From Vicinamibacteria bacterium (GTDB lineage: Bacteria; Acidobacteriota; Vicinamibacteria; Fen-336; JAGNNV01), in NCBI GenBank assembly GCA_017990495.1, contig JAGNNV010000003.1:1-38292 (forward strand): DNA of 38,292 nucleotides, in the 5' to 3' direction. A program made the translations under genes and the position numbers. The notes beneath the pieces are model-generated. The model searched no databases, was not told the DNA's origin, and saw only the letters and a list, made by a program, of their open reading frames with translations. This document shows positions 303 to 36,967 of the stretch, piece after piece. Within the stretch, counting starts at the first letter, position 1, and the number at the start of each line of letters is the position of its first letter.

Positions 303-2276
303 ATGCGTTTCCTCGTGGCGTTGACCCTCGGCTTCCTGACCCTGGCCGCGGTGGCGAGCGGAGCCGAGTTGCAGGAGGAGGCGAGCACGGGTGAGTTCCG
401 GTACCGCCGTGGCCCGGCCCAGCCTTTCGAGGTCGCGCCCATGGTCGAAACGCGGGTTCGGTTCGACGTTACCGGCGTGATCGCCCGCGCCACCGTGGTG
501 CAGCGCTTCAAGAATCCGCTCGATGGCTGGATCGAAGGGGTATACGTGTTTCCCCTTCCTGAGGACGCGGCGGTCGACCATCTGAGCATGCGCGTGGGCG
601 AGAGGGTGATCGAGGGACAGATCCGCGAGAAACAGCAGGCGCGCGAGGAGTTTCGCCGGGCCGCGGCGGAGGGGAAGCGTGCGAGCCTGATTGAACAGGA
701 GCGCGCGAACCTCTTCACCGCCGCGGTGGCGAACCTCGGACCCAACGAGGAACTGGAGGTGGAGATCGAGTATCAGGAGACCCTCGACCTCGACGAGGGG
801 CGGGTCGGCCTCACCTTTCCCTTGGCCATCACGCCTCGCTACACACCCGGAATCTGCAACCTGAGTGGCACGGGCGGCCCGTCTTCGGGAACGGGGGGCG
901 TCGTGGCGACGAATCCGGTGTCCATCGAGCTGCGTCTCAACGCGGGCTTCGAGGTCGCCTCGTTGACCAGCTCCACCCATCCCATTGATGTGGAGTCGTC
1001 GTCGGGGCAGACTTTCAAGGCGCGGCTGCGCGGAGGGCAGGTTCCCGCCGACCGCGACTTCGAGATCTCGTGGACCCCGTCTCCCGGGGTGATGCCCCAG
1101 AGCAGCATCACCACGCAGAAGGGGCCGGACGGGACGTATGCCCTCGTCACTCTGTTCCCGCCGACGGGCCACGCCGCGCGGTCGGCGCGTTTGCCACGCG
1201 AGGTCACCTTCGTAATCGACACTTCGGGTTCGATGGCGGGGGCTTCGATGGAGCAGGCGAAGAAGGCGCTGGTGATGGCGATCAAGCGCCTCGAGGAGGC
1301 GGATTCGTTCAACGTCATCGAGTTCAACTCGGAGACTTCGGTGCTTTTCTCCGGGCCGGTCCCGGCTTCGCCCGCGAACGAGGATCGCGCCATCACCTGG
1401 GTCGAGTCCCTGGGCGCGGGGGGCGGGACGGAGATGTTGCCCGCGCTGATCGCCGCGCTGGCCGACCCGCCGCAGGGCGTCTCGGAGCAACGTGCCGGAG
1501 TGCGCCAGGTGATCTTCCTGACCGACGGGGCGGTGGGCAACGAGGATGAGCTGTTCTCGATCATCAAGGACCGGCTGGGGCGCGCCCGTCTCTTCACCGT
1601 GGGCATCGGCTCCGCGCCCAACCGCCACTTCATGACGAAGGCCGCCCAGTTCGGCCGCGGGACTTTCACGTTCATCGCCGACGTGTTGACGGTGGAAAAG
1701 TCGATGGCCGAGCTTTACACGAAGATCGAGAGTCCGGTTCTCTCCGATATCCGCCTGTCGTTCGACGGGGGCGCGGCCGAGCAGGCCGAAGTGTGGCCGG
1801 ATCGCATACCCGATCTCTACCTCGGCGAGCCGTTGGTGGTGGGAGTGCGCTTCGAGCAGTCACCAACCGCGATCCGGGTGAGCGGCGAGCGCGACGGTCA
1901 GCCGTTTTCGACCGTGGTTCCCCTCGACGAGGCGCGGAGCGGAGTCGGGATCAACGTGTTGTGGGCGCGTCGGAAGATCCAGTCCCTGCTCGACGGGATC
2001 AATGAAGGTGACGATCCGGAGGCAGTGCGCGCTCAGGTGGTGTCGCTTGGCCTTGCCCATCATCTCGTGACCGACCACACCAGCCTGGTCGCCGTCGACG
2101 TCACGCCATCGCGGCCGGTCGATGCGGGTCTCGAGCGAGTGGATATCCCCCTCACTCCGCCGCACGGCGCCCCTGGTTCGTTGCCGCAGACCGCGACGCC
2201 CGCCGCGCTCTTCCTGCTCCAGGGTCTTTCCGCCATCCTCGCCGCATTCATTGTCCTGGCCGCGACAAGGCGATGA
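303..2276 (+). CDS. VIT and VWA domain surface protein with C-terminal sortase signal
   Basis: A 657-residue exported protein. Residues 1-21 form a Sec signal peptide. A VIT (inter-alpha-trypsin-inhibitor-like) domain spans about residues 30-165, and a von Willebrand A domain about 300-470 carries the MIDAS motif DTSGS (306-310) and a later LTDG. The C-terminus is a classic sorting signal: LPQTA at 627-631, then a hydrophobic helix and a Thr-Arg-Arg tail. The architecture matches the family known as marine proteobacterial sortase target proteins. The ATG at 303 was chosen because it begins the signal peptide directly; an in-frame ATG at 201 would bury it behind 34 odd residues. The stop overlaps the start of the sortase gene by 4 nt (ATGA), so the substrate and its enzyme are co-translated. 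VIT-VWA proteins are generally adhesive or metal-ion-dependent binding proteins; the ligand is unknown. Confidence 0.88.
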   Translation: MRFLVALTLGFLTLAAVASGAELQEEASTGEFRYRRGPAQPFEVAPMVETRVRFDVTGVIARATVVQRFKNPLDGWIEGVYVFPLPEDAAVDHLSMRVGERVIEGQIREKQQAREEFRRAAAEGKRASLIEQERANLFTAAVANLGPNEELEVEIEYQETLDLDEGRVGLTFPLAITPRYTPGICNLSGTGGPSSGTGGVVATNPVSIELRLNAGFEVASLTSSTHPIDVESSSGQTFKARLRGGQVPADRDFEISWTPSPGVMPQSSITTQKGPDGTYALVTLFPPTGHAARSARLPREVTFVIDTSGSMAGASMEQAKKALVMAIKRLEEADSFNVIEFNSETSVLFSGPVPASPANEDRAITWVESLGAGGGTEMLPALIAALADPPQGVSEQRAGVRQVIFLTDGAVGNEDELFSIIKDRLGRARLFTVGIGSAPNRHFMTKAAQFGRGTFTFIADVLTVEKSMAELYTKIESPVLSDIRLSFDGGAAEQAEVWPDRIPDLYLGEPLVVGVRFEQSPTAIRVSGERDGQPFSTVVPLDEARSGVGINVLWARRKIQSLLDGINEGDDPEAVRAQVVSLGLAHHLVTDHTSLVAVDVTPSRPVDAGLERVDIPLTPPHGAPGSLPQTATPAALFLLQGLSAILAAFIVLAATRR

Positions 2277-2881
2277 AGCGGCGGGCCCTTCAGGTCGCGG
2301 CCGTGGTGGTGATCGTCTGGGGTGTGAGCCAGATGGCGCGCGGGGCTTACATCCATTCCAAGGCTTCTCTGGCCCAGGCTCTTATCCGATGGGCGTGGGT
2401 CAAAGCATCAACGAAAGGAGGCTCACCGAAGCCGTGGCCATGGGCGGACACCACGCCCGTGGCCCGGCTGGGCGCGCCCATGCATCGCGTGGATTTGATC
2501 GTTCTCGAGGGCGGCAACGGGAGCACACTCGCCTTTGGGCCGGGACACGTCGCCGGCACGCCGCGTCCTGGGGAACGTGGGAACGTGGTGATCGGCGGCC
2601 ATCGCGATACCCATTTCCGCTTTCTCAAGGACCTCAGGCGCGGTGATCAGCTCCTCCTCGAATCGCCGGGGGGTGAGCTGGTCGACTACTTCGTTACCGC
2701 AACGGCGGTGGTGGACTACTCTCACACCGAGGTGATGCGCGACTTCGGCGACGACCGTCTCACCCTGATCACCTGCTACCCGTTCGATGCGATCCGTCCT
2801 GGCGGTCCGGAGCGCTATGTGGTCACCGCGATTCGAGCCCGTGAAAGCGCCTATCTTCCCTCGGTGACGCCGGCGAGTTGA
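2273..2881 (+). CDS. Class D-type sortase (dedicated transpeptidase for the VIT/VWA protein)
   Basis: A 202-residue membrane-anchored sortase. An N-terminal transmembrane helix (about 8-25) is followed by the sortase beta-barrel with His110 in GGHRDTHF, the catalytic Cys168 in the TLITCYP motif and Arg181 in GGPERYVV, so the His-Cys-Arg triad is complete. Sortases cleave LPxT-type signals and join the substrate to an amine acceptor on the cell surface. The immediately upstream, 4-nt-overlapping gene encodes a protein ending in LPQTA plus a hydrophobic segment, so it is the obvious substrate. The gene ends convergently, with a 31-bp tail-to-tail overlap with the M28 peptidase gene. Family assignment is firm. 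The natural acceptor in a probably diderm cell is unknown. Confidence 0.9.
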   Translation: MKRRALQVAAVVVIVWGVSQMARGAYIHSKASLAQALIRWAWVKASTKGGSPKPWPWADTTPVARLGAPMHRVDLIVLEGGNGSTLAFGPGHVAGTPRPGERGNVVIGGHRDTHFRFLKDLRRGDQLLLESPGGELVDYFVTATAVVDYSHTEVMRDFGDDRLTLITCYPFDAIRPGGPERYVVTAIRARESAYLPSVTPAS

Positions 2882-4170
2882 GCGATGGCGGCGAGCGTGG
2901 TCTGGGCCGCGTTCAAGCCGAGCCGGAAGTCTTTGTCGGAATACGTGGCGTACATATCGCTCGGCTGATGCCAGTGCGGATTCCATCCCGCGCCGATCTG
3001 CATCCCGCGCTCGTTCTCTCGCAGGCTGATGGCGGGGATGAGGTCCATGAAGGGCGTGGAGTCGGTGTTGGTCATGTGGAATCCAACCGCGGCCGGATAG
3101 TCGGTTGCGTACTTGTCGTTCGCGGCGCGGAAGAACCAGGCGAGTCTCGCCGCGGCATCCGCCTCCTTGGCCGTCGACTGGAACTCGATGTTGACGTCGG
3201 CCTCGAGCCGCTGTTCTTTCGGCGAGACGAAAATCGCCCGCCCGTTCCCGTCGACTTCCGGCCGGCCCGCCGCGTCCACCTTGGGAACCGGCATGCCGTG
3301 GTCCCACAACATCATGTCGTGCTGGATCATGCCCAGCCACTTCGGTTCGGGATAGCGGCCCGAGCCCTTGGGACTCTCAATGCCCTGCAGGTCCTTGCGC
3401 TGGGCGACGTAGGCGTTCGCACCGTTGAGGCCCGACTCTTCGTTGTTGAACAGGATGAAGCGGATCGAGCGCTCGCTGCTGAGCCCAGGCTGGTGAAGGA
3501 TGCGCGCCAGTTCCATGACGATGGCGGTCCCGGAGCCGTCGTCGTTCGCGGCCTCCCCCCAGCCGATGCCATCCATGTGGGCGCCGACGATGTACATCTC
3601 GTTCGGGAACTTCGCGCCGACCTTCGTGCAGTAGACCTGATCGCGTGGCGTGGTCCCTGGAGGAGTCGGCTCCGAGTTGAGAGCGCGCAGGGCCTCGTCG
3701 GCCTGCAACAGCGGATCGTTGTTCACGCCGGTGCGCGCGCGATTGCCGAACAGGGTACTGCCACCCTGGCCGCGCGCTCCGCCCAGGCCACCGCCGCTCA
3801 TCGCGGCCGCAGGCCGAGCCGGCGGTGCGGCGCCCGGCCCGGGAGTGGGTCTCGGAGTGGGTTGGGTGAACTCGTAGGTCATGCGCTCGGTGTTCGTGCA
3901 GCCGTAGCTCCTGAGCTGAGCCTCGATCCAATCGAGTGCTTTGCGATTGCGTTCGGTGCCCTGTCGCCGATCGCCGAACCGGGTGAGCTCCTTGATCGTG
4001 GCCTTGTAGCGATCGAGATCGAGTTGACGGACGAGCTTGGCCACGGGATCGTCGGGGGCAACGGGCGGTGGCGCCTGTGGGGGCTGGGCCGAGAGCAGTC
4101 GCGCGCCGAGCAGAGTGGCGGCCGCCACGGTCATGGCGCGGCGGGCCGTGAGTTCGTTGAGAAAGCGCAT
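2851..4170 (-). CDS. Exported M28-family zinc metallopeptidase
   Basis: A 439-residue protein with an N-terminal export signal; a twin Arg at residues 10-11 before the hydrophobic stretch makes Sec or Tat export possible. M28 di-zinc ligands are visible: His198 in GAHMDG, Asp in ANDDGSG (209-211), the Glu244-Glu245 pair in FNNEESG, Asp285 in MIQHDM, and a late His in PHWHQPSD. M28 enzymes are aminopeptidases or carboxypeptidases. A Pro/Gly/Ala-rich insertion at about residues 103-140 separates the N-terminal helix region from the catalytic core and looks like a linker or low-complexity insert. The ATG at 4170 was chosen over a longer frame because a clear AAGGAG ribosome-binding site sits 5 nt upstream and the signal peptide begins there. 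Substrate specificity cannot be read from the sequence. Confidence 0.88.
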   Translation of the reverse strand: MRFLNELTARRAMTVAAATLLGARLLSAQPPQAPPPVAPDDPVAKLVRQLDLDRYKATIKELTRFGDRRQGTERNRKALDWIEAQLRSYGCTNTERMTYEFTQPTPRPTPGPGAAPPARPAAAMSGGGLGGARGQGGSTLFGNRARTGVNNDPLLQADEALRALNSEPTPPGTTPRDQVYCTKVGAKFPNEMYIVGAHMDGIGWGEAANDDGSGTAIVMELARILHQPGLSSERSIRFILFNNEESGLNGANAYVAQRKDLQGIESPKGSGRYPEPKWLGMIQHDMMLWDHGMPVPKVDAAGRPEVDGNGRAIFVSPKEQRLEADVNIEFQSTAKEADAAARLAWFFRAANDKYATDYPAAVGFHMTNTDSTPFMDLIPAISLRENERGMQIGAGWNPHWHQPSDMYATYSDKDFRLGLNAAQTTLAAIAQLAGVTEGR

Positions 4171-4175
4171 AGAGA

Positions 4176-4181
4176 CTCCTT
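4176..4181 (-). promoter_or_regulatory. Shine-Dalgarno site fixing the M28 peptidase start
   Basis: On the minus strand AAGGAG lies 5 nt before the ATG at 4170. It is one of the few strong Shine-Dalgarno sites in front of a first gene here and settles the start against an upstream in-frame extension. Confidence 0.7.
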
Positions 4182-4266
4182 CTTGTGCCAACTCGCCCCG
4201 GCCGGGGAAGTGTAGCCCCTCGCAGGCACCCAAAGATGGCGCGACGGATCGGCTCCGCGCCTCCAA

Positions 4267-6456: not shown

Positions 6457-7035
6457 CTACTTGCGGCAGCGGTAGACAAAGGCGGGCGGCATGTTCCGCC
6501 ACACCACCTTTGAGGTTTCCACGTGCTGGAAGCGCGACCTCAGTAACTCGCGGAACTTCCGCCCCGTCGGCAACCAGGCGGCGTGGGAGTACCCGAAGGT
6601 GGCGAAACGTCCCCCCGGCCGAAGCGCGTCCACCGCGGCGTCGAGCAGGATGCGCTGACGATCGGGAGAGAAGGCTGCCCAGGGCAGGCCGCTGATGGTG
6701 GTATCCACCTCGTGCCTCCCCGCGGCCTTGAGGTGGTGGGCGAGATTCTCGACCGAGTCGTTCACCACCTGAACGCCCGGGAAGCGGGCGGACAGGGTTT
6801 TCGCGAGATCAGGGTTGATCTCGAACGACAGGAAGCGGGCGCCGGGCTTGAGCTGATCCTGGATCACCTTGGTGAAGACGCCGGTCCCCGGTCCCAGTTC
6901 AACCACGGTGTCGGCCTCGGCGATGCCCATCTGGTCCACGATCACCCTGGCGAGATGGGTGGAACTCGGGGTGATGGCGCCGGTATCGAACGGCCGCCGG
7001 ACAAAAGCAGCCAGGAATCTCGCGTGGTCGTGCAT
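6457..7035 (-). CDS. PmtA-like class I SAM methyltransferase (phospholipid N-methyltransferase family)
   Basis: A 192-residue Rossmann methyltransferase. SAM motif I is ELGPGTG (46-52), followed by an acidic SFEIN loop, an ISGLPWAAF motif and a late FGYSHA strand. The N-terminal ARFLAAFVRRP-ITPSS pattern and the SGLP motif are those of the phosphatidylethanolamine N-methyltransferase/COG3963 group, related to the KsgA-like methyltransferases. It may methylate membrane phospholipids, but the substrate is inferred only from family. The ATG at 7035 was chosen because the upstream frame adds a low-complexity Ala/Arg-rich extension and because a GAGAAT box lies 11 nt before it. It is 50 bp downstream of the JAMM-like gene on the same strand. 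Confidence 0.72.
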   Translation of the reverse strand: MHDHARFLAAFVRRPFDTGAITPSSTHLARVIVDQMGIAEADTVVELGPGTGVFTKVIQDQLKPGARFLSFEINPDLAKTLSARFPGVQVVNDSVENLAHHLKAAGRHEVDTTISGLPWAAFSPDRQRILLDAAVDALRPGGRFATFGYSHAAWLPTGRKFRELLRSRFQHVETSKVVWRNMPPAFVYRCRK

Positions 7036-7046
7036 GGGGGGCGAGG

Positions 7047-7052
7047 ATTCTC
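7047..7052 (-). promoter_or_regulatory. Putative extended -10 box GAGAAT
   Basis: On the minus strand TGCGAGAAT (extended -10 form) ends 11 nt before the ATG at 7035. No Shine-Dalgarno sequence is present. It resembles the other near-start boxes in this window but has a weaker hexamer. Confidence 0.3.
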
Positions 7053-7085
7053 GCACGGCAGCCGCTGTGGCCCTCGGACTTGGGT

Positions 7086-8234
7086 TCATCGCGGCCGTGG
7101 TCGCAAACCCTCGAAATGCCTGCGCCACGCGTCCGATCGGTGGCGGATCACCTTGTGCAGCGACAAGTCCACCCGCCCCGAGTCGGCCAAAGGCCCGGCG
7201 TCGTAGAGGTCGAAGCCATCAGGCTGAAATGACAGGGTGAGGAACTGTCCGAAGCGGACGGCATTTTGCATGTCCTCGAAGCTCGGTCCATCGCTTTCCA
7301 CCCATTCCCCGCCCATCTCTTTTGGGGCGTGAGTGTGCCATCCGCCCACGTAGCGGCCGTTCCAGTCCCGGCCGGTGACCAGAGCCAGATGCTCCTCCGG
7401 TCCGAGCGAGTACGTAGGGGCGGTGTTCTTCGCCACCGTGGCCGCCGCGCGTCGCACTTCATCGCCCGAGCCTGGGGCGCCCAGTCGGTAGCGCGCCACC
7501 GCCACTTTGAGCAAGGCGTGATTGTCGACCTGCGCCATCTCCGCCGGACGGCTCTCGAAGAGCGCCGCCAGCGACCGGGCATCGTTCGAGACTCCTGCCA
7601 GTTCCTGAATCGTGCGCCAGCGCGGGTCTAAGACCTCGGCAAGACGTAGTTCCGTGTCGATGGTGGCCTCGCCCCCGGTTTCGGGAGTGAGCCATGGGCC
7701 GCCGATCCGCACGCCCCGCCCGATGGCCTCTTCGAAGAGGGTCTGGATTCTGAGAATCGACGCGGGAGCGAGCGTGGCGGCGCGGAGCTGGTCGTGGCTG
7801 ATCGGGTTGTCCTCGGTGGCGGCGAGCCCGTGCCACTCATTCAGCCGCCGCAGGGTTCGCGCCATCACCGGCGAGAGCACCAACGAGGGGCGGGGCCCCC
7901 CACCCCTGCCCTCGGTTGAGAGATGGGTTGCGTCAAGGACCAGAGGTCCGCGGTTGTTCCGTATCCAGGCGACCAACGTTCCAGCCTCCGCACCGAGACC
8001 GAGGTGGTTGGTGGCGATGAGAAGGGGCAGCCCCTCGCTCTGCACGGCCTGATCGAGCCGCCTTGTGTCTTTCGGCTCCACTTTGGCCTGCCCGAAGGCC
8101 AGTGCCCCGATCAGGGCGAGGGCGGCGAACAGGGCGCGCCGGCCTGCCCGTGGCGCCGGACTGCCCCTATGCGGGGCGGCTGTGCACCCCGGGGGGGCGG
8201 CGGACCGGGTTGGGCCTGCGGGCATAAGTGACAT
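7086..8234 (-). CDS. Exported protein with JAMM/JAB-like C-terminal domain
   Basis: A 382-residue protein not confidently assigned to a named family. A hydrophobic segment at about 32-50, ending in Ala-Phe-Gly-Gln-Ala, looks like a signal peptide or anchor after a long Pro/Arg-rich leader. The middle (60-270) is mostly helical with no motif I recognise. The C-terminal part (about 278-350) reads like a JAMM metalloprotease core: EEHLALVTG, then GGWHTHAP (His300, His302), then GPSFEDM (Ser318, Asp321), then LSFQPDGFDLYD. This follows the order Glu, HxH, SxxD, with about six extra residues between HxH and SxxD. JAMM domains bind zinc and cleave isopeptide or peptide bonds. An exported version would be unusual. 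ATG 8234 fits the upstream TAACCT box; ATG 8225 is an alternative. Confidence 0.55.
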   Translation of the reverse strand: MSLMPAGPTRSAAPPGCTAAPHRGSPAPRAGRRALFAALALIGALAFGQAKVEPKDTRRLDQAVQSEGLPLLIATNHLGLGAEAGTLVAWIRNNRGPLVLDATHLSTEGRGGGPRPSLVLSPVMARTLRRLNEWHGLAATEDNPISHDQLRAATLAPASILRIQTLFEEAIGRGVRIGGPWLTPETGGEATIDTELRLAEVLDPRWRTIQELAGVSNDARSLAALFESRPAEMAQVDNHALLKVAVARYRLGAPGSGDEVRRAAATVAKNTAPTYSLGPEEHLALVTGRDWNGRYVGGWHTHAPKEMGGEWVESDGPSFEDMQNAVRFGQFLTLSFQPDGFDLYDAGPLADSGRVDLSLHKVIRHRSDAWRRHFEGLRPRPR

Positions 8235-8243
8235 GCGGGAAAC

Positions 8244-8249
8244 AGGTTA
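8244..8249 (-). promoter_or_regulatory. Putative -10 box TAACCT
   Basis: On the minus strand TAACCT ends 9 nt before the ATG at 8234, with no Shine-Dalgarno sequence. It fits the TAnnnT near-start pattern seen for other first genes. Confidence 0.35.
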
Positions 8250-8276
8250 CCGGACGAACACGCCTGTTCCGAGTCG

Positions 8277-8292
8277 CGGCACGAACCTTGAA
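8277..8292 (+). promoter_or_regulatory. Sigma-54-like promoter candidate
   Basis: GGCACG at 8278-8283, four bases, then TTGAA at 8288-8292 matches the -24/-12 layout (TGGCACG-N4-TTGCA) with correct spacing and two mismatches: C for the first T, and A for the C of the -12 element. It would start transcription near 8303, about 40 nt before the sugar-transferase ATG, leaving room for its GAGGAA ribosome-binding site. A sigma-54 activator is encoded two genes downstream. Confidence 0.4.
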
Positions 8293-8341
8293 GAAGAGTG
8301 CACCGACATGCGAACACATCTCCAATCTCGAGGAACCGATC

Positions 8342-8842
8342 ATGAGACCGCTTGACTTCATCGCGGGCGTCACCGCCCTTCTGGTTCTGGGTCTGCCCCT
8401 TGCCCTGCTGTGTGCTCTGGGTCTGCGGTTTGACGGGCACAGGACGCTCATGGTGGGTCGTGGGGCAGGACTCTTCTGGCGCCATCGTTTGACCTTCCGG
8501 CCCGGTCGATTCACCGACCTGGCCGGCCGCCTGGGCCTGGAGCGCTTCCCGGACGCCCTCTCCCTCGTGCGTGGCGAGATCGCCCTCGTCGGCCCTCGGC
8601 CGCTCGCGCCTCTCGAACCACACGCCGTGGCCTCGTACCGCATCGCGGTGCGGCCCGGTCTCGCCTCGCCCTACTTGTTCAATCACTGGGACGAGTTTGG
8701 ATTCGATTCCGAAGATGCCGTCGACTACGAGTACGCCCTGAATCGATCCTGGAGGGGCGACCTCGCCATCCTCCGCCACTTCCTGTCGGCCTGGCTCCAC
8801 CAGACTCGGCAGCCTCATCACGCCATGGGAGGCTCCAAGTGA
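8342..8842 (+). CDS. Small bacterial sugar transferase (phosphoglycosyl transferase family), altered active site
   Basis: A 166-residue protein of the monotopic phosphoglycosyl transferase family, which moves a sugar-1-phosphate from a nucleotide sugar to polyprenyl phosphate. Visible are the N-terminal re-entrant hydrophobic helix (about 5-29), the RGEIALVGPRPL motif (78-88), an RPG motif and a C-terminal LNRSWRGDLAIL segment. The catalytic Asp-Glu dyad expected just before that motif (LDEL in PglC) is replaced by Glu67-Arg68, and the usual GLAQVxGR region is diverged. Activity is therefore doubtful; it may bind lipid or regulate. The ATG at 8342 was chosen for its GAGGAA site 6 nt upstream. 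The stop overlaps the next start by 4 nt (GTGA). Confidence 0.72.
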   Translation: MRPLDFIAGVTALLVLGLPLALLCALGLRFDGHRTLMVGRGAGLFWRHRLTFRPGRFTDLAGRLGLERFPDALSLVRGEIALVGPRPLAPLEPHAVASYRIAVRPGLASPYLFNHWDEFGFDSEDAVDYEYALNRSWRGDLAILRHFLSAWLHQTRQPHHAMGGSK

Positions 8843-10176
8843 GCACATTCATCTTCACCGATTCGGCCACGCTGCTCCATCACAACCCGACCTCTCCTTG
8901 CGCCACCGGCGACATCGACTGCGCGCGGCTGCGCGAGCGGATTGGTGGTCGGCTCACGTTGTCCGGGGGCGCTCACGTCGAGAGGGTCCTGCACGATCTC
9001 GTCCGGAAAGCGGCGAAGGCGGTGCTGGCTTCGGTACCGGCCGCCAATCTGAAGACGCTGGTCCTCGCCGGAAGTTGCGGCCGCGGCGAAGGCGGGGTCC
9101 GAGTCGAGCATGTGGTTGAGCACGCCTCGAGCAGCCTCGACTTCGTGCTCTTCACCACCGGGCTCAAGAGCCCGGCAAGGAGTCACCTCGCTTCGAAGAT
9201 CAACGCGGACCTTGAGCGCCTGAGGCGGCGGTCCGGCCTGGTCATCGGCGTGAGAGTGGCCGATGCCCGGAGGGTCGAGCGTGATCGCGTGCGCCTGCTT
9301 TGGTACGAAGTCAGGGACGGACACAAGGTGCTGGCCGGGGACCCCGCTTTCCTCTCCGGCCTCACAAGGTTCACGGTCGAGAATGTGGACGCGCGGGACC
9401 TCGCGGACCTCGTGGTCAATCGCGGCGCCCTTCTGGTCATGAACGATCTCATCACCGCTCAGGGGCCGCTCACACCGGAGCGCCGCGAGGCCGTGGTGGC
9501 CAACAGCGTGAAGGCGGTGATCGGCTACGGCGACGCCTTCCTGTTCAGTCGCGGCCGGTACCACGCGAGTTACGTGGAGCGGCGTCGGCGCATGGCCGAC
9601 CGATCCAATCCCGCCACTCCGGAGTTCAAGGCCCTCTACGAAGCGGCGATGCATCATCGCTTCACCGGTGATCCTAAGGATGCGGCGCGCATTCTCGCCG
9701 CGGTGGAGACCGGCCGCCTTCGCCAGGTTCTGCGCGACCTGCACCTCGAAATCGAGCGCCGACGTCTGGGCGCGCGTCGCCTGACCTTCGACGACTACAT
9801 CCGCCCCGCTCTCGAGCATGAACTGGATGGCCTGAAGTCTTCCTTGCGCAAGCTGGCCAAGGGCGCCCTGATTCTGATCCGCGGCGGCTTCGGCCGCGGT
9901 GGAGGATCCCCCTATTCCCTGCAGGTGGCACTGCACGCGAGCGGCGAGAAGGGGGCGCCCCGTGCCCTTTTCCCTCTCATCGCCTACGGGACCGACGAGA
10001 TCGAATCCGGCGACGCCCTCGTGGCGCGCCGGCTGCTGGGGGTCCGCCGTCTCCGTTCCGCCGCGGCCAAGCTGTTGTGGCTCGAGATGTGGAGCAAGGC
10101 CTTCCGCACGCACTACGTGGCTTCGTTCAAGTCTCTGGGCATCGGCGTCGATCCCCTTGCCCGGGCCGCTGCCTGA
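8839..10176 (+). CDS. Nucleotidyltransferase-like protein coupled to the sugar transferase
   Basis: A 445-residue protein starting at GTG, overlapping the sugar-transferase stop by 4 nt. The region around residues 73-107 looks like a polymerase-beta-type nucleotidyltransferase core: strand LKTLVLAG, then GSCGRGEG (78-85), then a strand SSLDFVLFT with Asp101. In typical relatives this strand begins Asn-Asp-x-Asp; here the first metal-binding Asp is replaced by Ser and only the second remains. The remaining ~330 residues are mainly helical and Arg-rich (for example 232-260 and 300-345), with no motif I recognise. Proteins of this kind occur beside exopolysaccharide sugar transferases, but their role is not established. 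Function uncertain: possibly nucleotidylation, possibly a degenerate regulatory partner. Confidence 0.6.
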   Translation: MSTFIFTDSATLLHHNPTSPCATGDIDCARLRERIGGRLTLSGGAHVERVLHDLVRKAAKAVLASVPAANLKTLVLAGSCGRGEGGVRVEHVVEHASSSLDFVLFTTGLKSPARSHLASKINADLERLRRRSGLVIGVRVADARRVERDRVRLLWYEVRDGHKVLAGDPAFLSGLTRFTVENVDARDLADLVVNRGALLVMNDLITAQGPLTPERREAVVANSVKAVIGYGDAFLFSRGRYHASYVERRRRMADRSNPATPEFKALYEAAMHHRFTGDPKDAARILAAVETGRLRQVLRDLHLEIERRRLGARRLTFDDYIRPALEHELDGLKSSLRKLAKGALILIRGGFGRGGGSPYSLQVALHASGEKGAPRALFPLIAYGTDEIESGDALVARRLLGVRRLRSAAAKLLWLEMWSKAFRTHYVASFKSLGIGVDPLARAAA

Positions 10177-10194
10177 TTCCGGGTCACCCCCTTC

Positions 10195-10209
10195 CCCGGT
10201 CGGACCGGG
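10195..10209. terminator. Short hairpin between nucleotidyltransferase and regulator genes
   Basis: CCCGGT (10195-10200), a 3-nt loop and ACCGGG (10204-10209) form a 6-bp GC-rich hairpin 3 bp before the -10 box of the regulator gene. No T-run follows. It may end the upstream transcript or act as an operator; both are guesses. Confidence 0.3.
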
Positions 10210-10212
10210 ATC

Positions 10213-10218
10213 TAGAAT
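10213..10218 (+). promoter_or_regulatory. Putative -10 box TAGAAT, near-leaderless
   Basis: TAGAAT ends 9 nt before the ATG at 10228 and no Shine-Dalgarno sequence intervenes. Transcription would begin within about 3 nt of the start codon. It lies immediately 3' of a 6-bp palindrome. Confidence 0.45.
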
Positions 10219-10227
10219 GGCGGCCCC

Positions 10228-11598
10228 ATGGAAGCCATCCTCATCGTCGACGATGACGAGTCCGTCTGCGCGATGCTCAAGGAGACCCTGGCCAAACCGG
10301 GGCGCCTCGTGCAATCGACGAACAGTGACGAGGAGGCTCTGGCCCTCGCCGAACATTCGCGTTTCGATGTCGTCGTGTCGGACCTCAATCTTGGGTCGAG
10401 TCGCGACGGAATTGACGTTCTCAAAGCGTTCCGCGCGCGCGCTCCGCTCACTCAGGTCATCCTGATGACGGGTTACGGAACGGTGGAAAGCGCGGTCGAG
10501 GGTGTGCGCGCGGGCGCCTTCGACTACATCAGCAAGCCCTTCGACGTCGGCGATGTGATGACCACGGTCGAGCGCGCTCTGGCGAGCGCCTCTGAGGGCT
10601 CGCCCTCGGCCGCTCCCATCCGGGCGGCCATGCCCGTGGGCCTCGTCGGCCGCTCGGCGTCGATGCTCTCCGTGTACAAACAGGTGGCGCTGGCCGCGGA
10701 TGCGATGACTCCGGTGTTGATCGTCGGGGAGACGGGCACGGGCAAGGAACTGGTGGCGCGCGCCATCCACTCGTTCGGCAAGGTCAAGGCCCGGCCTTTC
10801 GAGGCCCTCAACTGCGCGGTGGTCCCGGAAACCCTCCTTGCTTCGGAGTTGTTCGGACATGTGAAGGGCGCCTTCACCGGCGCGGTCACCGACAAGAAGG
10901 GCCTCTTCGAGGCGGCGAGCGGCGGCACCATTTTCCTGGATGAGATCGGAGAAACCACGCCCGCACTGCAGGTGAGCCTCCTGCGGGTTTTGCAGGAAGG
11001 TGAGGTGCGCCCGGTCGGTGGAACCCGCACCCTCAAGGTGAACGCCCGGGTCCTCGCCGCCACCAATCGGAACCTCGACCTGGAGGTCGCGGAGAAGCGG
11101 TTTCGCCAGGATCTGTTCTACCGATTGAGCGCCTTCATCATCCGCGTGCCGCCGCTGCGCGAACGGCGCGACGACATTCCCCTTCTGGCGAGCGCCTTCC
11201 TGCGGAACGCCTGCGCGCGGGCCGGCCGACAGGTTGAGCTGACGCCCGGCGCCATGGCCGTGCTCTCCGCCCACAGCTTTCCGGGCAACGTCCGGGAACT
11301 CGAGAACACCATCGAACGTCTGGTCCTGACCACACGGAGCGCCCGGGTCCGGGAAGAGGAAGTCGCTGAGCATCTCCACCAGGCCGGCCCCGTGGTCGTG
11401 GAGGCTTTCGCGGACCTGCCCTCGCTCGATGAATTGGAACGGCGCTACCTCATCCATGTTCTCGAAGCGGCCAGGGGCAATCGAACCCGGGCTGCCGAGA
11501 TTCTGAAAATCGACCGACGGACCCTCTACCGGATGGCCGCGCGGTACGGGATCGACCTCGCCTCGGAAGGCGAAGAGACCCCGAAAGGTGGGAGTTAG
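10228..11598 (+). CDS. Sigma-54-dependent response regulator (NtrC family)
   Basis: A 456-residue three-domain activator. The receiver domain (1-118) has the acidic pocket at Asp8-Asp10, phospho-acceptor Asp52, Thr81 and Lys103. The AAA+ domain (about 138-370) has Walker A GETGTGKE (167-174), the sigma-54 contact loop GAFTGA (214-219), Walker B FLDE (236-239) and the RQDLFYRL sensor region. The C-terminal Fis-type helix-turn-helix covers about 405-442. All key residues are present, so it should be a phosphorylation-controlled activator of sigma-54 RNA polymerase. No histidine kinase is in the window. A sigma-54-like promoter lies ahead of the neighbouring sugar-transferase gene and could be a target. 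The HIT gene follows 2 bp after its stop. Confidence 0.93.
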   Translation: MEAILIVDDDESVCAMLKETLAKPGRLVQSTNSDEEALALAEHSRFDVVVSDLNLGSSRDGIDVLKAFRARAPLTQVILMTGYGTVESAVEGVRAGAFDYISKPFDVGDVMTTVERALASASEGSPSAAPIRAAMPVGLVGRSASMLSVYKQVALAADAMTPVLIVGETGTGKELVARAIHSFGKVKARPFEALNCAVVPETLLASELFGHVKGAFTGAVTDKKGLFEAASGGTIFLDEIGETTPALQVSLLRVLQEGEVRPVGGTRTLKVNARVLAATNRNLDLEVAEKRFRQDLFYRLSAFIIRVPPLRERRDDIPLLASAFLRNACARAGRQVELTPGAMAVLSAHSFPGNVRELENTIERLVLTTRSARVREEEVAEHLHQAGPVVVEAFADLPSLDELERRYLIHVLEAARGNRTRAAEILKIDRRTLYRMAARYGIDLASEGEETPKGGS

Positions 11599-11600
11599 AC

Positions 11601-12020
11601 ATGAGCATTTTCGGCAAGATCATCGCGGGGGAGATTCCCTGTCACCGTGTGTATGAGGACGGCCACGTCCTGGCTTTCCTCGACGTGAGCCCGCTGTCTC
11701 CCGGCCACACCCTGGTGATCCCCAAGGAGGCGGTGGCCACGCTCGATCAGCTCTCCGACGACTCGGCGGCGGCGATTGGCCGGGTGCTGCCGCGCATCGC
11801 GCGCGCCGTCCTTGCCGCGACAGGCGCCACCGATTTCAACGTGCTTCAGAACAACGGCGCTTCCGCCCACCAGGCGGTGTTCCACGTGCACTTCCACATC
11901 ATTCCCAAGGTCGCGGGTCAGGGTCTTGGGATCGACTGGCAGCCCATCAAGACCGAGGGCCCGGATCTCAAGGCTCTGAGCGAGCGGATCGTCGCCACGA
12001 TGGCGAGTCCGACCCGCTGA
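11601..12020 (+). CDS. HIT-family (Hint-like) nucleotide hydrolase
   Basis: A 139-residue histidine-triad protein of normal family length. It has the FGKIIAGEIP N-terminus, the PGHTLVIPK strand and the active-site triad His95-x-His97-x-His99 followed by IIPK. Hint proteins hydrolyse purine nucleoside phosphoramidates and AMP conjugates in the cytoplasm. The start ATG lies 2 bp after the stop of the response-regulator gene with a GGGAG site inside that gene, so the two are co-transcribed. It is convergent with the BY-kinase gene, 5 bp apart. Confidence 0.93.
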   Translation: MSIFGKIIAGEIPCHRVYEDGHVLAFLDVSPLSPGHTLVIPKEAVATLDQLSDDSAAAIGRVLPRIARAVLAATGATDFNVLQNNGASAHQAVFHVHFHIIPKVAGQGLGIDWQPIKTEGPDLKALSERIVATMASPTR

Positions 12021-12025
12021 GGAAA

Positions 12026-14221
12026 TCAGGGCTTGGTGGTCGGTCGGTCTGGCGAGGCATCGGTCGCGCCTGCGGCAACCGGAAGTTCGGAGGCTGACGG
12101 CCGAATGACTTCGGGCTGAACGGTGGTCTGCCCCTTCCGTTCCTTCGTGGCTCGCCCCGTGTAGTACTTTTCGTAGGTTGCGTAGTAACGGCCGTAGCGA
12201 TCCGAGATATCTCCGAAGTCGATCTGATTCAAGACGATGCCCAGCACGCGGATCGACTGGCCCTGAAGTTGCTCGACCGTCGCGATCACCGCCCCGCGAT
12301 GGGTTCGGCCCGCTGCGACCACGATGAGGGTTCCGTCGGCTTCGCGGCCAATGGTCAGGGCATCGGCGAGGGCGAGCGCGGGCGGGGTGTCGATGACCAC
12401 AAACCGGTACTCGGCCCGGGCTGCCTTCAGGAGCTTGGCGAGGCCGGCCCGGGCGAGGCGGGAGGCCGCGGCGGGATCGGCCTTGCCGGCGGGGAGGAAG
12501 TCGATGCCCCCGATCGAAACCACGTAGCCATCGAGAGTGCCGTCGCGAAGTGCGTCACCGAAGCCACGTTCGGCCTGCACTCCAAGCACCCCGTCGAGCG
12601 AGGGCCGGCGCAGGTCCCCGTCGATCAGCAGGACCCTTTCGCCGGTTTCGGCGAGGAGCAGGGCGAGAGCCGCCGACGAGGTGGACTTGCCGTCGCCCGG
12701 TCGAGCGCTGGTGACCGCGAACACCGAAACGTCAACGGGCAGATTCGCGCGGATCACCCGGTAGGCCTCGGCGATGGGAATCGAGTGACCCAGCAGGCCG
12801 GTCAGCCCTTCCGACTCGACCCGCTTGTCGATGGGGACGACGCCGAGCAGGGGGAGCCCGAGGCCCAACTGCCGAACGCTGTCGATGGTGCGCAAGGTTT
12901 CATCGACCCCGGCCCGCACGCGCGACAGGATGAACCCGATGATGAGTCCGACGATGAGGGCCCGCTGGTAGTTGAGCGCGGAGCGAGGGAAGGCGGGATC
13001 GGGATTGCGGGCCGCTCGCTGCACCGTGCGCGGCTCGAAGAGAGGGGCGTCCGTCCCCCGCTGGGAACGTTCGATCGCCTCGGTCAGGGCCCGTTCCCCC
13101 GCATCGGCTTCCCGCATCAAGACTGCGGCATCGAAAGAAGAGACCGCCACATCCGATGCCTTGTTGATGCCGCGATCAAGGGCGATGCGAAGCGCGTTCT
13201 GTTGTCGGATCAGGGATTCGAGCTCGATCTCGAGACGGGCCCGCTGGGCCAGCATCTCGCCCTCAAGACTCTGCTCGGCCGACTTGATCTGGGACAGGAG
13301 GGACACCACCTCAGGATGACGTTCGCCGAGGACCTCCTGCTTGGCTGAAAGTTCGGCCTGGAGGCCATCGAGTTTGACGCGCAGGGACTGGGCGCGCGCG
13401 CTTTCGGTTCCCACCACGGAGCGCCCGCTCGACGATGGCGCGAGCTGCGCCTCGAGGGTCAGCCGGCGCGACAGGATGCCGGCGAGCTGGTCCTGAAGCG
13501 CCCCAAGCTCCCTCTGGATCATGGGTCGGCGATAGGCGGGATTGCCTCCTTCAGTCTTCTGCGACTGTTCGCTCAGGGCGCCGAGAATCCCGCCCACGGC
13601 CTCCTTCTGGGTCTCGAGCGTCTGAGTCAGGATTTCCCGATCAGCGTCCAGGCTTTCCTCGTTGAATCGCTTCGAATCCTCCAGATAGCGGTCGAGGAGG
13701 CGGTTCAAGGCTGCGACGCCGGCTTCGGCGTCGTACGACGAGAACTGGACCGTGATCCACGGCGAGGGCGGTGTGCGCACCACCCGAAGGCGTGAACGGA
13801 ACGCGATGATGGACGCCTGCTTGTCGCCTCCGGGGCCGGTCCCCATCAGATCCTGATAGATGCCGGTGACCACGTCCATCCCCGTGCGAATGGGGCCGGT
13901 GGACAATTCGGCCGGCACACCCTCGCCATTGAGGCTGTCCACCGCGCCTTCGATGAGGTTCAGCGATTCGATGAGCGTGGCGTGCCTCGCCATCGCCGCC
14001 TCGACGGTCGGGGCATCGACGACCGGCCTCAAGCCCGGACGGCGGCTCACGGTTTCGATGGAGACCACCGCCTGGGTCATGTACACCGGGCGCGCGACCT
14101 GGTTGTACAACGCGGTCAGGGCAAGGCAGACAGCCAGGGGCGTCGCCATCCAGCGCCAGTGGCGATAGAAGAGCACGGCCTCTTCGTGGAACGATGATCG
14201 GTGGGACGAGTCCTCGTTCAT
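12026..14221 (-). CDS. Wzz-domain polysaccharide co-polymerase fused to BY tyrosine kinase
   Basis: A 731-residue inner-membrane protein. Two transmembrane helices (about 24-42 and near 415-435) bracket a long coiled-coil periplasmic Wzz/GNVR region. The cytoplasmic BY-kinase domain has Walker A SARPGDGKST, Walker A' LLIDGDLRRPSL and Walker B FVVIDTPP. The C-terminus has a tyrosine cluster of six Tyr in 12 residues (encoded at about 12165-12200), the usual autophosphorylation tail. Such proteins control chain length and export of capsule or exopolysaccharide. The ATG at 14221 was chosen because it directly precedes the first helix and has a TAGAAT box 10 nt upstream; longer frames run back into the dehydratase gene. 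It is the last gene of the operon, 13 bp after the dehydratase stop, and may also be transcribed on its own. Confidence 0.92.
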   Translation of the reverse strand: MNEDSSHRSSFHEEAVLFYRHWRWMATPLAVCLALTALYNQVARPVYMTQAVVSIETVSRRPGLRPVVDAPTVEAAMARHATLIESLNLIEGAVDSLNGEGVPAELSTGPIRTGMDVVTGIYQDLMGTGPGGDKQASIIAFRSRLRVVRTPPSPWITVQFSSYDAEAGVAALNRLLDRYLEDSKRFNEESLDADREILTQTLETQKEAVGGILGALSEQSQKTEGGNPAYRRPMIQRELGALQDQLAGILSRRLTLEAQLAPSSSGRSVVGTESARAQSLRVKLDGLQAELSAKQEVLGERHPEVVSLLSQIKSAEQSLEGEMLAQRARLEIELESLIRQQNALRIALDRGINKASDVAVSSFDAAVLMREADAGERALTEAIERSQRGTDAPLFEPRTVQRAARNPDPAFPRSALNYQRALIVGLIIGFILSRVRAGVDETLRTIDSVRQLGLGLPLLGVVPIDKRVESEGLTGLLGHSIPIAEAYRVIRANLPVDVSVFAVTSARPGDGKSTSSAALALLLAETGERVLLIDGDLRRPSLDGVLGVQAERGFGDALRDGTLDGYVVSIGGIDFLPAGKADPAAASRLARAGLAKLLKAARAEYRFVVIDTPPALALADALTIGREADGTLIVVAAGRTHRGAVIATVEQLQGQSIRVLGIVLNQIDFGDISDRYGRYYATYEKYYTGRATKERKGQTTVQPEVIRPSASELPVAAGATDASPDRPTTKP

Positions 14222-14231
14222 GCAGCACTCG

Positions 14232-14237
14232 ATTCTA
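14232..14237 (-). promoter_or_regulatory. Putative internal -10 box TAGAAT for the BY-kinase gene
   Basis: On the minus strand TAGAAT ends 10 nt before the ATG at 14221, overlapping the stop codon of the dehydratase gene. It would give a leaderless BY-kinase mRNA separate from the long operon transcript. Confidence 0.45.
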
Positions 14238-15728
14238 TGGGCACGAGGCATCCTTGGTTGAGGGGACCACGGGGCCTTCGGTTTCGTCCGCTCTGCCCAG
14301 GCCGGGAAAGAATTCGCGCAGGCGCTCGCGCACCGCGGAGTTGGCTCCGGACAGGGCCAGGGCCTCGAGCCCATCGAGCCACTCGGAGGCGAGCGGGGGG
14401 ACACTCACCGTCGAGCGTGCCGACCAGATGCGCGGGTGACGGGTCTGCTCGGCGGTCTCGCTCTCCAGGAAAAGGCTCTCCCGGATCTTCTCGCCGGGCC
14501 GAAGGCCGGTGAAGGTGATCTCGATGTCGAGCCCGGGCTCACGGCCCGAGAGGCGTATCAGGTCCTGGGCCAGGCTCAGGACCTTCACCGGCGCACCCAT
14601 GTCGAGCACGAAAGTCTCGCCACCCTCGCCCAGGGCCGCGGCCGAGACCACCAGGCTCGAAGCCTCCTGGAGGGTCATGAAGTAACGCTCCACCTCCTTG
14701 TGCCGCACCGTCACCGGTCCACCGGCCGCGATCTGCTCCCGGAAAAGGGGTACCACGCTCCCGCTGCTCGCGAGGACATTGCCGAACCGCACCGCCACTA
14801 CGCAGCCTTGTTTGCGCCGAGCAGCCTCTACGGCAAGCAACTCGGCCACACGTTTGCAGGCGCCCATGATTCCGGCCGGATGAACCGCTTTGTCGGTAGA
14901 GATGAGGACGAAGCGCTGCACCGAAGCCGCGGCGGCCGCTTCCAGCAGGTTGCGGGTGCCGAAGATGATGTTCAGGACCGCCTCGTCCTCGTTCACCTCG
15001 GTGAGCGGGATGTGCTTGTACGCGGCCGCATGGAACACGACCTTCGGGGCCAGCCCCTTGAGCACCCGGTGCATCTTCGCGCGATCGCGGATGTTTCCGA
15101 TCAGAGGCACGATCTCTGGAGAACGGTTGAGTCCGCGCAGTTGCCGGTCGATTTCGTAGAGGGCGTTTTCCGACAGGTCGAGAAGGGTGAGGCGGGAGGG
15201 GTCGTGGCGCAGCACCTGGCGGCAGATCTCGGATCCGATGCTGCCGCCCGCACCGGTAACCAGCACGCTTGCGCCCCTCAGATACTCCCCGGCCTGGGCG
15301 TCGATGGGGATGGGGCTGCGGCGAAGCAGGTCGGAGACGTCGAGGTCGCGCACCGCGCTCACCTCGAGCGTTCCGCTGAGGATTTCGGCGAGGCTCGGTA
15401 TGGTGCGCAGGCGGAATCCGAGGGCGGCGCAGAGGGACGAAATCTCGCGAACCACCCTTCCGTTGGCGCTGGGCATGGCCAGCACGCCGAGCTCGGCCTC
15501 CGTTTCCGCCACGACGCGTCCCAGTTCCCGGCAGGGGCCGAGCACGTTCAGTCCCTCGATGCGCGCTCCCACCTTTGACGGGTCGTCATCGACAAAACCG
15601 ACGGCGACGAGTCCGAGCCGGGCGCGTTGCGCGATCTCTCTCGCCACAAGACGCCCCGCCGAACCGGCGCCGACGATGATCACGCGCTGAGCCGCGACCG
15701 GCGGCTCACCAGGAGCAGGAGGCCTCAA
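14235..15728 (-). CDS. CapD/PglF-type UDP-sugar 4,6-dehydratase (soluble form)
   Basis: A 497-residue extended-SDR protein with two nucleotide-binding units. A CoA-binding-like Rossmann domain has GAGSAGR at 20-26. The dehydratase domain (about 150-440) has TGAGGSIG at 158-165, the HAAAYKHIPL motif and the catalytic Thr278-Asp-Lys plus Met288/Lys292 that replace the classical SDR Tyr. Members convert UDP-GlcNAc-type sugars to 4-keto-6-deoxy intermediates. The four N-terminal transmembrane helices of most WbpM/PglF homologs are absent, so this form is probably cytosolic. The start is TTG at 15728, overlapping the GNAT stop (TTGA) and backed by a GGAGGAG site 7 nt upstream. With the DegT and PglD-like genes of the operon it forms a bacillosamine-type set. 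Confidence 0.88.
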   Translation of the reverse strand: MRPPAPGEPPVAAQRVIIVGAGSAGRLVAREIAQRARLGLVAVGFVDDDPSKVGARIEGLNVLGPCRELGRVVAETEAELGVLAMPSANGRVVREISSLCAALGFRLRTIPSLAEILSGTLEVSAVRDLDVSDLLRRSPIPIDAQAGEYLRGASVLVTGAGGSIGSEICRQVLRHDPSRLTLLDLSENALYEIDRQLRGLNRSPEIVPLIGNIRDRAKMHRVLKGLAPKVVFHAAAYKHIPLTEVNEDEAVLNIIFGTRNLLEAAAAASVQRFVLISTDKAVHPAGIMGACKRVAELLAVEAARRKQGCVVAVRFGNVLASSGSVVPLFREQIAAGGPVTVRHKEVERYFMTLQEASSLVVSAAALGEGGETFVLDMGAPVKVLSLAQDLIRLSGREPGLDIEITFTGLRPGEKIRESLFLESETAEQTRHPRIWSARSTVSVPPLASEWLDGLEALALSGANSAVRERLREFFPGLGRADETEGPVVPSTKDASCP

Positions 15729-35112: not shown

Positions 35113-35136
35113 CCCGCCCCCGGTTGGAGGCGGGGG
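35113..35136. other. GC-rich inverted repeat between dnaK and dnaJ
   Basis: CCCGCC and GGCGGG, with alternative pairings among flanking C and G runs, form a strong hairpin in the 84-bp dnaK-dnaJ spacer. It has no T-run. It may set transcript stability or partial readthrough between the two genes. Confidence 0.4.
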
Positions 35137-35150
35137 AGAACAAGGGCCAG

Positions 35151-36959: not shown

Positions 36960-36967
36960 GATCTCTC

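What the first reader, a model, noticed from the sequence alone, without database searches (positions are those of the whole stretch)
7086..8234. Possible exported JAMM-domain protein
GGWHTHAP closely resembles the GWYHTHP core of JAMM/MPN proteases and is followed by PSFED (Ser318, Asp321) and a DGFDLYD strand, with a Glu pair upstream at 280-281. JAMM proteases are normally cytoplasmic; here a hydrophobic segment ending in a signal-peptide-like site precedes the domain, and the 60-270 region is of no known family.
Basis: partly seen in the sequence, partly recalled or inferred. Interest (0 to 1): 0.5.

Follow-up and report, generated by a model that had tools for sequence, protein, structure and literature searches.

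The report
Exported bacterial JAMM-type metalloenzyme family
This gene belongs to a small family of bacterial proteins that look like zinc enzymes of the kind that cuts ubiquitin off other proteins, but that seem to be sent out of the cytoplasm, where no ubiquitin-like target is known.

Summary
The 382-aa ORF is real but lies on the MINUS strand (8234 to 7086). Two AlphaFold models (window protein; a 36%-identical homologue) match solved JAMM/MPN domains best, at modest Z (up to 7.4); Foldseek alone finds nothing significant. JAB/JAMM models are the most frequent weak hits in three family libraries. In 20 members from Vicinamibacteria (8 of 193 genomes) and Elusimicrobiota (11 of 340), E-x-G-G ... 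W-H-x-H ... P-S-x-x-D is kept in 19; the exception has lost Glu, both His, Ser and Asp together. The likely active-site Glu is Glu185, not Glu280/281 (kept in 7 and 4 of 20). All 18 readable N-termini carry a hydrophobic signal-like segment. A 73-82-residue helical insertion sits where alignment places Ins-1, which holds the ubiquitin tail in Rpn11. No neighbour is shared beyond the genus, where a methyltransferase gene follows in two of three genomes; no toxin module or ubiquitin-like partner was seen among the genes searched. Best reading: an exported, stand-alone JAMM-fold zinc hydrolase, probably a peptidase of an unknown envelope substrate. Metal, activity, export and substrate are untested. 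New variant of a known kind.

The parts
7086..8234 (-). whole gene, 382 aa (ATG at 8234; a second in-frame ATG at 8225)
   Evidence: homologues
8091..8147 (-). residues 30-48: hydrophobic signal-peptide-like helix, AxA-like site near residue 46
   Evidence: similar segment in 18 of 18 members with a readable N-terminus
7815..8072 (-). residues 55-140: N-terminal alpha/beta region, absent from the short Vicinamibacteria members
   Evidence: only weak clamp-like rows (Z about 3-4)
7110..7799 (-). residues 146-375: JAMM/MPN-like domain with one large insertion
7680..7682 (-). Glu185 in P-E-x-G-G, proposed general base (E-x-x-G as in E-V-C-G of Prok-JAB)
   Evidence: E in 19 of 20, K only in the member that lacks the other site residues
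7410..7628 (-). residues 203-275: helical insertion at the inferred place of Ins-1
   Evidence: helices; 73-82 residues in 20 of 20 members; the segment after it aligns with Prok-JAB
7335..7337 (-). His300, proposed zinc ligand
   Evidence: 19 of 20
7329..7331 (-). His302, proposed zinc ligand
   Evidence: 19 of 20
7284..7325 (-). residues 304-317: loop with a beta hairpin between HxH and SxxD, longer than in Prok-JAB
7281..7283 (-). Ser318, proposed oxyanion-stabilising residue
   Evidence: 19 of 20
7272..7274 (-). Asp321, proposed zinc ligand
   Evidence: 19 of 20
7113..7139 (-). C-terminal family signature R366-x-x-x-W370-x-x-x-F374
   Evidence: R, W and F invariant in 20 of 20
6457..7128 (-). 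overlapping downstream methyltransferase gene (RrnaAD / Methyltransf families), possible operon partner within the genus only
   Evidence: homologous ORF directly downstream in G002, L053 6807-7523

Best explanation
A stand-alone metalloenzyme of the JAMM/MPN+ fold that is exported through the inner membrane by an N-terminal signal sequence (or stays anchored by it). His300, His302 and Asp321 bind a zinc ion; Glu185 activates the zinc-bound water; Ser318 steadies the transition state. It most likely hydrolyses a peptide or isopeptide bond of a cell-envelope or secreted substrate that is not ubiquitin: at the inferred place where ubiquitin-specific JAMM enzymes carry the Ins-1 loop, which holds the ubiquitin tail, it carries a helical bundle of 73-82 residues. 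Shown here by computation: the ORF and its conservation, the predicted fold, the conserved motif and the signal-like segment. Inferred: zinc, catalysis, export, peptidase chemistry, the role of the insertion and the place of the substrate.
For: AlphaFold model of the window protein: mean pLDDT 84.5, pTM 0.77; 20 of the 22 listed PDB rows at Z of 5 or more are JAMM/MPN (Rpn11 7.4 over 120 residues at 3.5 A, CSN5 6.8, AMSH 6.2, A. fulgidus JAMM 5.4). Second model, of homologue L013 (pLDDT 87.9, pTM 0.85): 40 of 48 listed rows at Z of 5 or more are JAMM/MPN; the other 8 align only within 68-167, mainly the insertion. Sequence, best weak hits of 20 members: PADLOC JAB models, 11 of the 13 families listed, best 8e-4 (this library holds many JAB models); Pfam Prok-JAB in 4 of 20, best 0.0028; NCBIfam desampylase in 9 of 20, best 0.0024. 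hhalign against seven Prok-JAB sequences puts HxH and SxxD in register, P = 1.8e-4 with 20 rows, 5e-4 with 9 rows. Site residues: 19 of 20, and joint loss in the twentieth, L036. Signal-like segment: 18 of 18 readable N-termini have a charge-free 12-residue window of mean hydropathy 1.75-2.82, 17 of 18 at 1.8 or more, against 7 of 27 window ORFs at 1.8 or more. Ins-1 as the holder of the ubiquitin tail: passages of PMC6043591.
Against: Foldseek alone gave no PDB match at E of 0.001 or less for either model, its best rows being unrelated; the VIA-align rows only re-align Foldseek's candidates, every Z is under 8, a range the tool warns about, and a designed helix bundle ranks third. Both models come from the same nine sequences. 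The window protein itself matches nothing in Pfam, NCBIfam or PADLOC; the library hits come from homologues, are weak (8e-4 or worse) and, where positions were shown, cover mainly the HxH region; hhalign gave a probability of only 31-49% and did not cover Glu185. Signal peptides were judged by a simple hydropathy rule, and for several homologues I chose the start codon. All eight Vicinamibacteria genomes are drafts of 170 to 840 contigs; the quality of the Elusimicrobiota genomes is not stated. No assay.
Confidence: 0.7

Rival explanations
1. An exported JAMM-fold hydrolase that is not a peptidase, for example a nuclease, as proposed for the RadC and Tox-JAB clades.
For: PMC3482391 (section 26 read) suggests nuclease activity for JAB domains that lack the ubiquitin-tail tunnel; here the inferred place of Ins-1 is also changed.
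Against: No RadC or DUF4329 match was listed in Pfam up to E = 10 (the program's filters drop most hits above 0.1). The most frequent weak hits are to peptidase-type JAB families (desampylase, Prok-JAB).
Confidence: 0.12
2. A secreted toxin or effector that acts on neighbouring bacteria or on eukaryotic ubiquitin.
For: Exported JAB domains are known in polymorphic toxins, and secreted forms in large DNA viruses and Xanthomonas phages. Patchy distribution.
Against: No toxin module matched in Pfam in 20 members; no neighbour shared across families that would be an immunity gene, among the ORFs compared. No match in 50,697 phage or 72,556 plasmid records; none of 121 pattern candidates in viral contigs was a relative. 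Some homologues have open frames longer than the start I chose (L033: 1159 codons), so fusions there are not excluded.
Confidence: 0.1
3. A JAMM-fold protein that is cytoplasmic, the hydrophobic segment being an anchor with the domain inside, or read from a wrongly chosen start.
For: For the window gene 33 residues precede the hydrophobic segment, long for a signal peptide; residues 1-29 have confidence under 50 in the model, and the start is not certain.
Against: The hydrophobic segment recurs near the N-terminus in homologues with different sequences around it.
Confidence: 0.1
4. Not a JAMM protein: a different fold with a chance HxH motif.
For: Foldseek finds no significant match; Z under 8.
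Against: Two structure models, and the most frequent weak hits in three profile libraries, are JAMM/JAB; the five JAMM site residues are conserved and lost together.
Confidence: 0.05

Closest known systems
Prok-JAB / archaeal JAMM peptidases (HvJAMM1 desampylase, A. fulgidus JAMM)
   Same: E-x-x-G, H-x-H, S-x-x-D in the same order; predicted fold; weak profile hits
   Different: no signal-like segment or helical insertion is known to me in those (recalled); here WHxHPP or WHTHAP in place of YHSHP, and a longer loop before SxxD
Rpn11 / CSN5 / AMSH (eukaryotic and archaeal deubiquitinases)
   Same: best structural rows (Z 5.5-7.4)
   Different: 6-20% identity in the listed rows; Ins-1, which positions the ubiquitin tail (PMC6043591, passages), has a helical bundle at its inferred place; no ubiquitin-system partner seen among the neighbours searched
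[quoted passage not shown]
   Same: exported JAB domains with E, HxH, S, D
   Different: no toxin architecture or shared immunity-type neighbour seen; no DUF4329 match listed
lambdoid tail protein K, JAB plus NlpC domains (PMC1779556, passages)
   Same: a JAB domain in a tail gene cluster, away from E1/E2 enzymes
   Different: phage tail gene; here a chromosomal gene without a phage match

Membership tests
JAMM/MPN+ metalloenzymes (JAB superfamily) | JAMM/MPN alpha-beta fold | tested here: met
   two predicted models, 20 of 22 and 40 of 48 listed rows at Z of 5 or more; caveat: Z under 8 and no Foldseek hit at E of 0.001 or less
JAMM/MPN+ metalloenzymes (JAB superfamily) | Glu + HxH + SxxD active-site residues conserved | tested here: met
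   E185, H300, H302, S318, D321 in 19 of 20 members; the twentieth lacks all five
JAMM/MPN+ metalloenzymes (JAB superfamily) | significant match to a curated JAB model | tested here: inconclusive
   Prok-JAB in 4 of 20, best 0.0028 (17.9 bits against a cut-off of 25); window protein none; PADLOC JAB best 8e-4
JAMM/MPN+ metalloenzymes (JAB superfamily) | zinc-dependent (iso)peptidase activity | not testable with these tools
   needs purified protein
JAMM deubiquitinases / UBL-processing JAB systems | gene neighbourhood with E1-like, E2-like or ubiquitin-like partner | tested here: inconclusive
   ORF comparison of 18 sequences shows no such shared gene, but only selected neighbours were searched in Pfam
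JAMM deubiquitinases / UBL-processing JAB systems | canonical Ins-1 loop that holds the ubiquitin tail | tested here: inconclusive
   a 73-82-residue helical insertion lies at the inferred place in 20 of 20 members; the place rests on alignment and order of elements, not on superposed coordinates
[quoted passage not shown] RHS) with an adjacent immunity gene | tested here: not met
   window ORF is 382 aa without other Pfam modules; neighbours shared only within the genus or one family and not immunity-like; upstream extension not excluded in some homologues
Tox-JAB-2 | match to Pfam DUF4329 | tested here: inconclusive
   20 members, none listed up to E = 10, but the window protein misses Prok-JAB too, so the test is weak
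RadC | match to the Pfam RadC model | tested here: inconclusive
   20 members, none listed up to E = 10; same weakness
Exported proteins (Sec) | N-terminal signal peptide | tested here: inconclusive
   hydropathy rule: 18 of 18 readable N-termini at 1.75 or more; control 7 of 27 window ORFs at 1.8 or more; no trained predictor available

The most novel reading that the evidence does not exclude
The first family of housekeeping (non-toxin) JAMM isopeptidases that works outside the cytoplasm: an enzyme that cuts amide cross-links in the cell envelope, either the D-Ala to diaminopimelate side-chain link of peptidoglycan or a protein-protein isopeptide link, with the helical bundle at the Ins-1 position reading the substrate in place of a ubiquitin tail. 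This would place JAMM chemistry in envelope remodelling of Acidobacteriota and Elusimicrobiota.
Probability: 0.15. Interest if true: 0.8.

Novelty: new variant of a known kind. Interest (0 to 1): 0.5.

Why it matters
JAMM enzymes are known mainly as cytoplasmic cutters of ubiquitin-like tags. A 2012 survey (PMC3482391, section 26 read) states that all prokaryotic JAB domains identified before it were intracellular, and calls toxin-borne ones unexpected. A family that keeps the full active site, carries an N-terminal signal-like segment and has a helical bundle at the inferred place of the ubiquitin-gripping element raises a concrete question: what does a JAMM enzyme cut in a compartment without known ubiquitin-like conjugation? 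The short homologues of about 280 residues are good targets for expression and crystallisation.

Tried and rejected
Glu280/Glu281 as the active-site Glu: rejected, kept in 7 and 4 of 20. Glu189 (which I favoured first from the 8-sequence alignment and named in my first notebook entry): rejected in favour of Glu185, because three members with an otherwise intact site have Ala at 189.

Conserved operon partner: ORFs of 17 loci and the first 20 kb of the window were compared (which printed the first 60 clusters; one search went through all 110 and listed those that hold the window or join the two phyla). Beyond the gene itself and its shadow frames, the window shares with its genus-mate G002 (L053) the methyltransferase directly downstream and an ORF at 2878-4212 without a Pfam family; the latter is also in G001 on the same contig but more than 20 kb away, and in G034, G040 and G042 on other contigs: 6 of 18 genomes searched. 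The neighbours accA, lpt-type, rapZ and ptsI are shared by the three genomes L039-L041 of one family, rpoN by these and L042: ordinary housekeeping genes. Sigma-54 response regulator, ABC ATPase, rpoN and VIT-VWA clusters are the only ones that join the window or its class with loci of other groups, at varying distances; taken as chance. Histidine kinases recur among Elusimicrobiota loci.

Routes that led nowhere: phmmer against PDB chains, 0 hits at E of 1 or less; profile searches with 8 and 20 sequences, 3 weak unrelated hits each; Foldseek against PDB and viral models, no hit at E of 0.001 or less; PHROGs, weak hits to families without stated function and a 'tail protein' family in 2 of 20 (best 0.13; not checked whether it is a JAB protein); phage and plasmid records and viral contigs, none. 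Clamp-like rows at Z 3-4 for the N-terminal region were taken as noise. Three of the six NCBIfam families and four of the five Pfam families hit by any member look unrelated, one member each.

Rows left out of the 20-member alignment: the 66-residue fragment L037 (G750) and the short N-terminal remnant of the second copy in G001 (L010/L026). L016 is cut by a contig end and the second G001 copy is cut at its N-terminus; both are in the 20 but not among the 18 N-termini. The Prok-JAB comparison set is 7 of the 12 proteins printed, from 20 loci; two RadC-like and three others were not used. The first N-terminus script overwrote rows that had the same name and printed 17 of 20; it was rerun with unique names. 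An AxA-like site was scored in 11 of the 15 readable N-termini, but the loose rule also scored both cut fragments, so I give it little weight.

Papers: PMC3482391 (passages and section 26), PMC1779556 and PMC6043591 (passages). That I found no description of an exported stand-alone bacterial JAMM family rests on paper searches, of an open-licence library only; for all other papers only search listings were seen.

Full report
WHAT IS THERE. The ORF at 7086..8234 is on the minus strand, 382 codons, ATG at 8234. The plus-strand frame from 7086 has several stops.

IT IS A CONSERVED GENE. The protein finds relatives in 8 of 60 near genomes, the window's own included, and, as a profile, in 8 of 193 genomes of the class, 2 of 396 of an even sample of the phylum (both are the window's genus) and 11 of 340 of Elusimicrobiota, one of the 11 as a 66-residue fragment only. 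The larger profile found the same genomes as the smaller one. A pattern scan of the species-genome collection gave 7 loci, one of them from Elusimicrobia; it is a less sensitive search of a different collection, so not a census. No match in 72,556 plasmid or 50,697 phage records. dN/dS in seven pairs is 0.17-0.38; in the three most distant pairs dS exceeds 1.6. A tree of 20 members separates the two phyla by one branch, support 92/89, not a starred one.

THE FOLD. AlphaFold on a 9-row alignment gave a confident model (pLDDT 84.5, pTM 0.77). Foldseek alone found nothing significant. A re-alignment of the 524 chains that Foldseek ranks highest put JAMM/MPN domains in ranks 1-19 and 22: Rpn11 (Z 7.4), archaeal Rpn11 (7.0), CSN5 (6.8), AMSH (6.2), A. 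fulgidus JAMM (5.4), Prp8 Jab1/MPN (5.5, 5.0); 20 of the 22 listed rows with Z of 5 or more. That the listed chains of proteasome, signalosome and spliceosome entries are the MPN subunits is inferred from residue range and chain. A model of the short homologue L013, 36% identical to the window protein (pLDDT 87.9, pTM 0.85), repeats this: 40 of 48 listed rows with Z of 5 or more, including Cap3 (9ild, 6.7) and a bacterial Ubl-deubiquitinase complex (8tyx, 6.2); the other 8, one of them at rank 3, align within 68-167, mainly the helical insertion. The same nine sequences stand behind both models, so they are not independent. No Z reaches 8.

SEQUENCE EVIDENCE. The window protein alone matches no Pfam, NCBIfam or PADLOC family. 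Scanning 20 members, the most frequent weak hits are JAMM families in three of the four libraries: PADLOC JAB models (11 of 13 listed families, best 8e-4; the library holds many such models), NCBIfam desampylase (9 of 20, best 0.0024) and the cap2_3 protein of an anti-phage system (3 of 20), Pfam Prok-JAB (4 of 20, best 0.0028). PHROGs hits were weak and mostly without a stated function. Profile-profile comparison with seven Prok-JAB sequences aligned TYSLGPEE, the WHTH and the PSxxD with their counterparts, P = 1.8e-4, probability 49%; with the 9-row alignment P = 5e-4, probability 31%. These alignments do not reach Glu185.

THE ACTIVE SITE. In 20 members E185, H300, H302, S318 and D321 are each present in 19. 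The exception, L036, has Lys, Tyr and Ser at the first three and a gap at the last two: all five lost together, as expected if they form one site. It may be an inactive paralogue. Glu185 stands in P-E-x-G-G, like E-V-C-G of Prok-JAB. Three-dimensional distances could not be measured.

THE INSERTION. Residues 203-275 (73-82 residues in all 20 members) are helical in both models. They lie between the second strand of the Glu hairpin and the TYSLGPEE segment that aligns with Prok-JAB before HxH. By this order they sit where Ins-1 is found in Rpn11 (place of Ins-1 in the sequence recalled); Ins-1 recognises and positions the ubiquitin C-terminus (PMC6043591, passages). Hence the inference that the substrate is not held like a ubiquitin tail.

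EXPORT. All 18 members with a readable N-terminus have a charge-free 12-residue segment with mean hydropathy of 1.75-2.82, 17 of 18 at 1.8 or more, against 7 of 27 window ORFs at 1.8 or more, some of which may be truly exported. The cysteines in the first 45 residues show no clear lipobox by eye. For several homologues I chose the start codon, which favours the finding. In the window protein 33 residues precede the segment, long for a signal peptide.

NEIGHBOURS. Downstream on the same strand a methyltransferase gene (RrnaAD, Methyltransf families) overlaps by 43 bases if its GTG at 7128 is the start; a homologous ORF lies directly downstream in genus-mate G002, so the two may form an operon within the genus. 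Divergently, a short bacterial sugar transferase begins an apparent polysaccharide region. No neighbour was found that is shared at a fixed place between families or phyla. No ubiquitin-like, E1-like or toxin-immunity partner was seen, though only selected neighbours were searched in Pfam. The window's own genome has no Prok-JAB match (75.8% complete); 11 of the 13 genomes of that search have one.

HOW IT PROBABLY WORKS. Zinc held by His300, His302, Asp321 and a water; Glu185 as base; Ser318 for the oxyanion: the established JAMM mechanism (recalled) mapped onto the conserved residues. The likely compartment and the changed Ins-1 region argue for an envelope or secreted substrate that is not ubiquitin. 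Whether the bond is peptide or isopeptide is open.

COMPARISON AND NOVELTY. It meets the fold and motif criteria of JAMM/MPN+ by prediction; activity is untested. It lacks the architecture of polymorphic toxins; nothing ties it to RadC, DUF4329 or a UBL operon, but those tests were weak. PMC3482391 (section 26) reports secreted JAB domains in toxins and viruses, so export of the fold has precedents; a stand-alone chromosomal family with this insertion was not seen in the ten paper searches listed in Tried and rejected. Verdict: new variant of a known kind, interest 0.5.

Noticed in passing
window 35124-36968 (+) and 35151-36959 (-): The plus-strand ORF matches Pfam PF10712 'NAD-specific glutamate dehydrogenase' at 1.2e-133, but the minus strand encodes Hsp70/DnaK (2.2e-229) beside DnaJ (33948-35066): the PF10712 model seems to describe the antisense of hsp70.
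   Followed up: yes
L052 5661-7478 (G001, also L011 11272-12000): A second copy of the gene in G001 lies about 3 kb from the first; its open frame of 606 codons begins with sequence that looks, by eye, like a transposase/integrase, and its N-terminal remnant is in a separate stretch: probably a copy broken by an insertion sequence.
   Followed up: partly
L046 3004-4353 and 13580-15019 (G730, Elusimicrobiota): Two divergent copies (WHCHPP and WHSHPP types) about 9 kb apart on opposite strands, in separate branches of the tree.
   Followed up: partly
L036 (G725, Elusimicrobiota): A family member that has lost all five predicted site residues but keeps W299, R294, G340, Y344, R366 and W370: a possible inactive paralogue with a binding role.
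   Followed up: partly
window 2878-4212 (+): 445-aa protein without a Pfam family, present in 6 of 18 genomes searched, near the JAMM gene in genus-mate G002.
   Followed up: partly
window 201-2276 (+); L048 4195-6612: VIT-VWA (inter-alpha-trypsin-like) protein gene about 5 kb from the JAMM gene in the window; a similar gene and a subtilase lie near the gene in Elusimicrobiota L048. Could be coincidence.
   Followed up: partly
window 8228-20771: Region with sugar transferase, response regulator with sigma-54 domain, ParA/BcsQ-like ATPase, GNAT, ABC ATPase and glycosyltransferase genes: looks like a polysaccharide cluster.
   Followed up: no
window 38045-38117 (-): tRNA gene, the only Rfam match at the gathering score in the window.
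   Followed up: no
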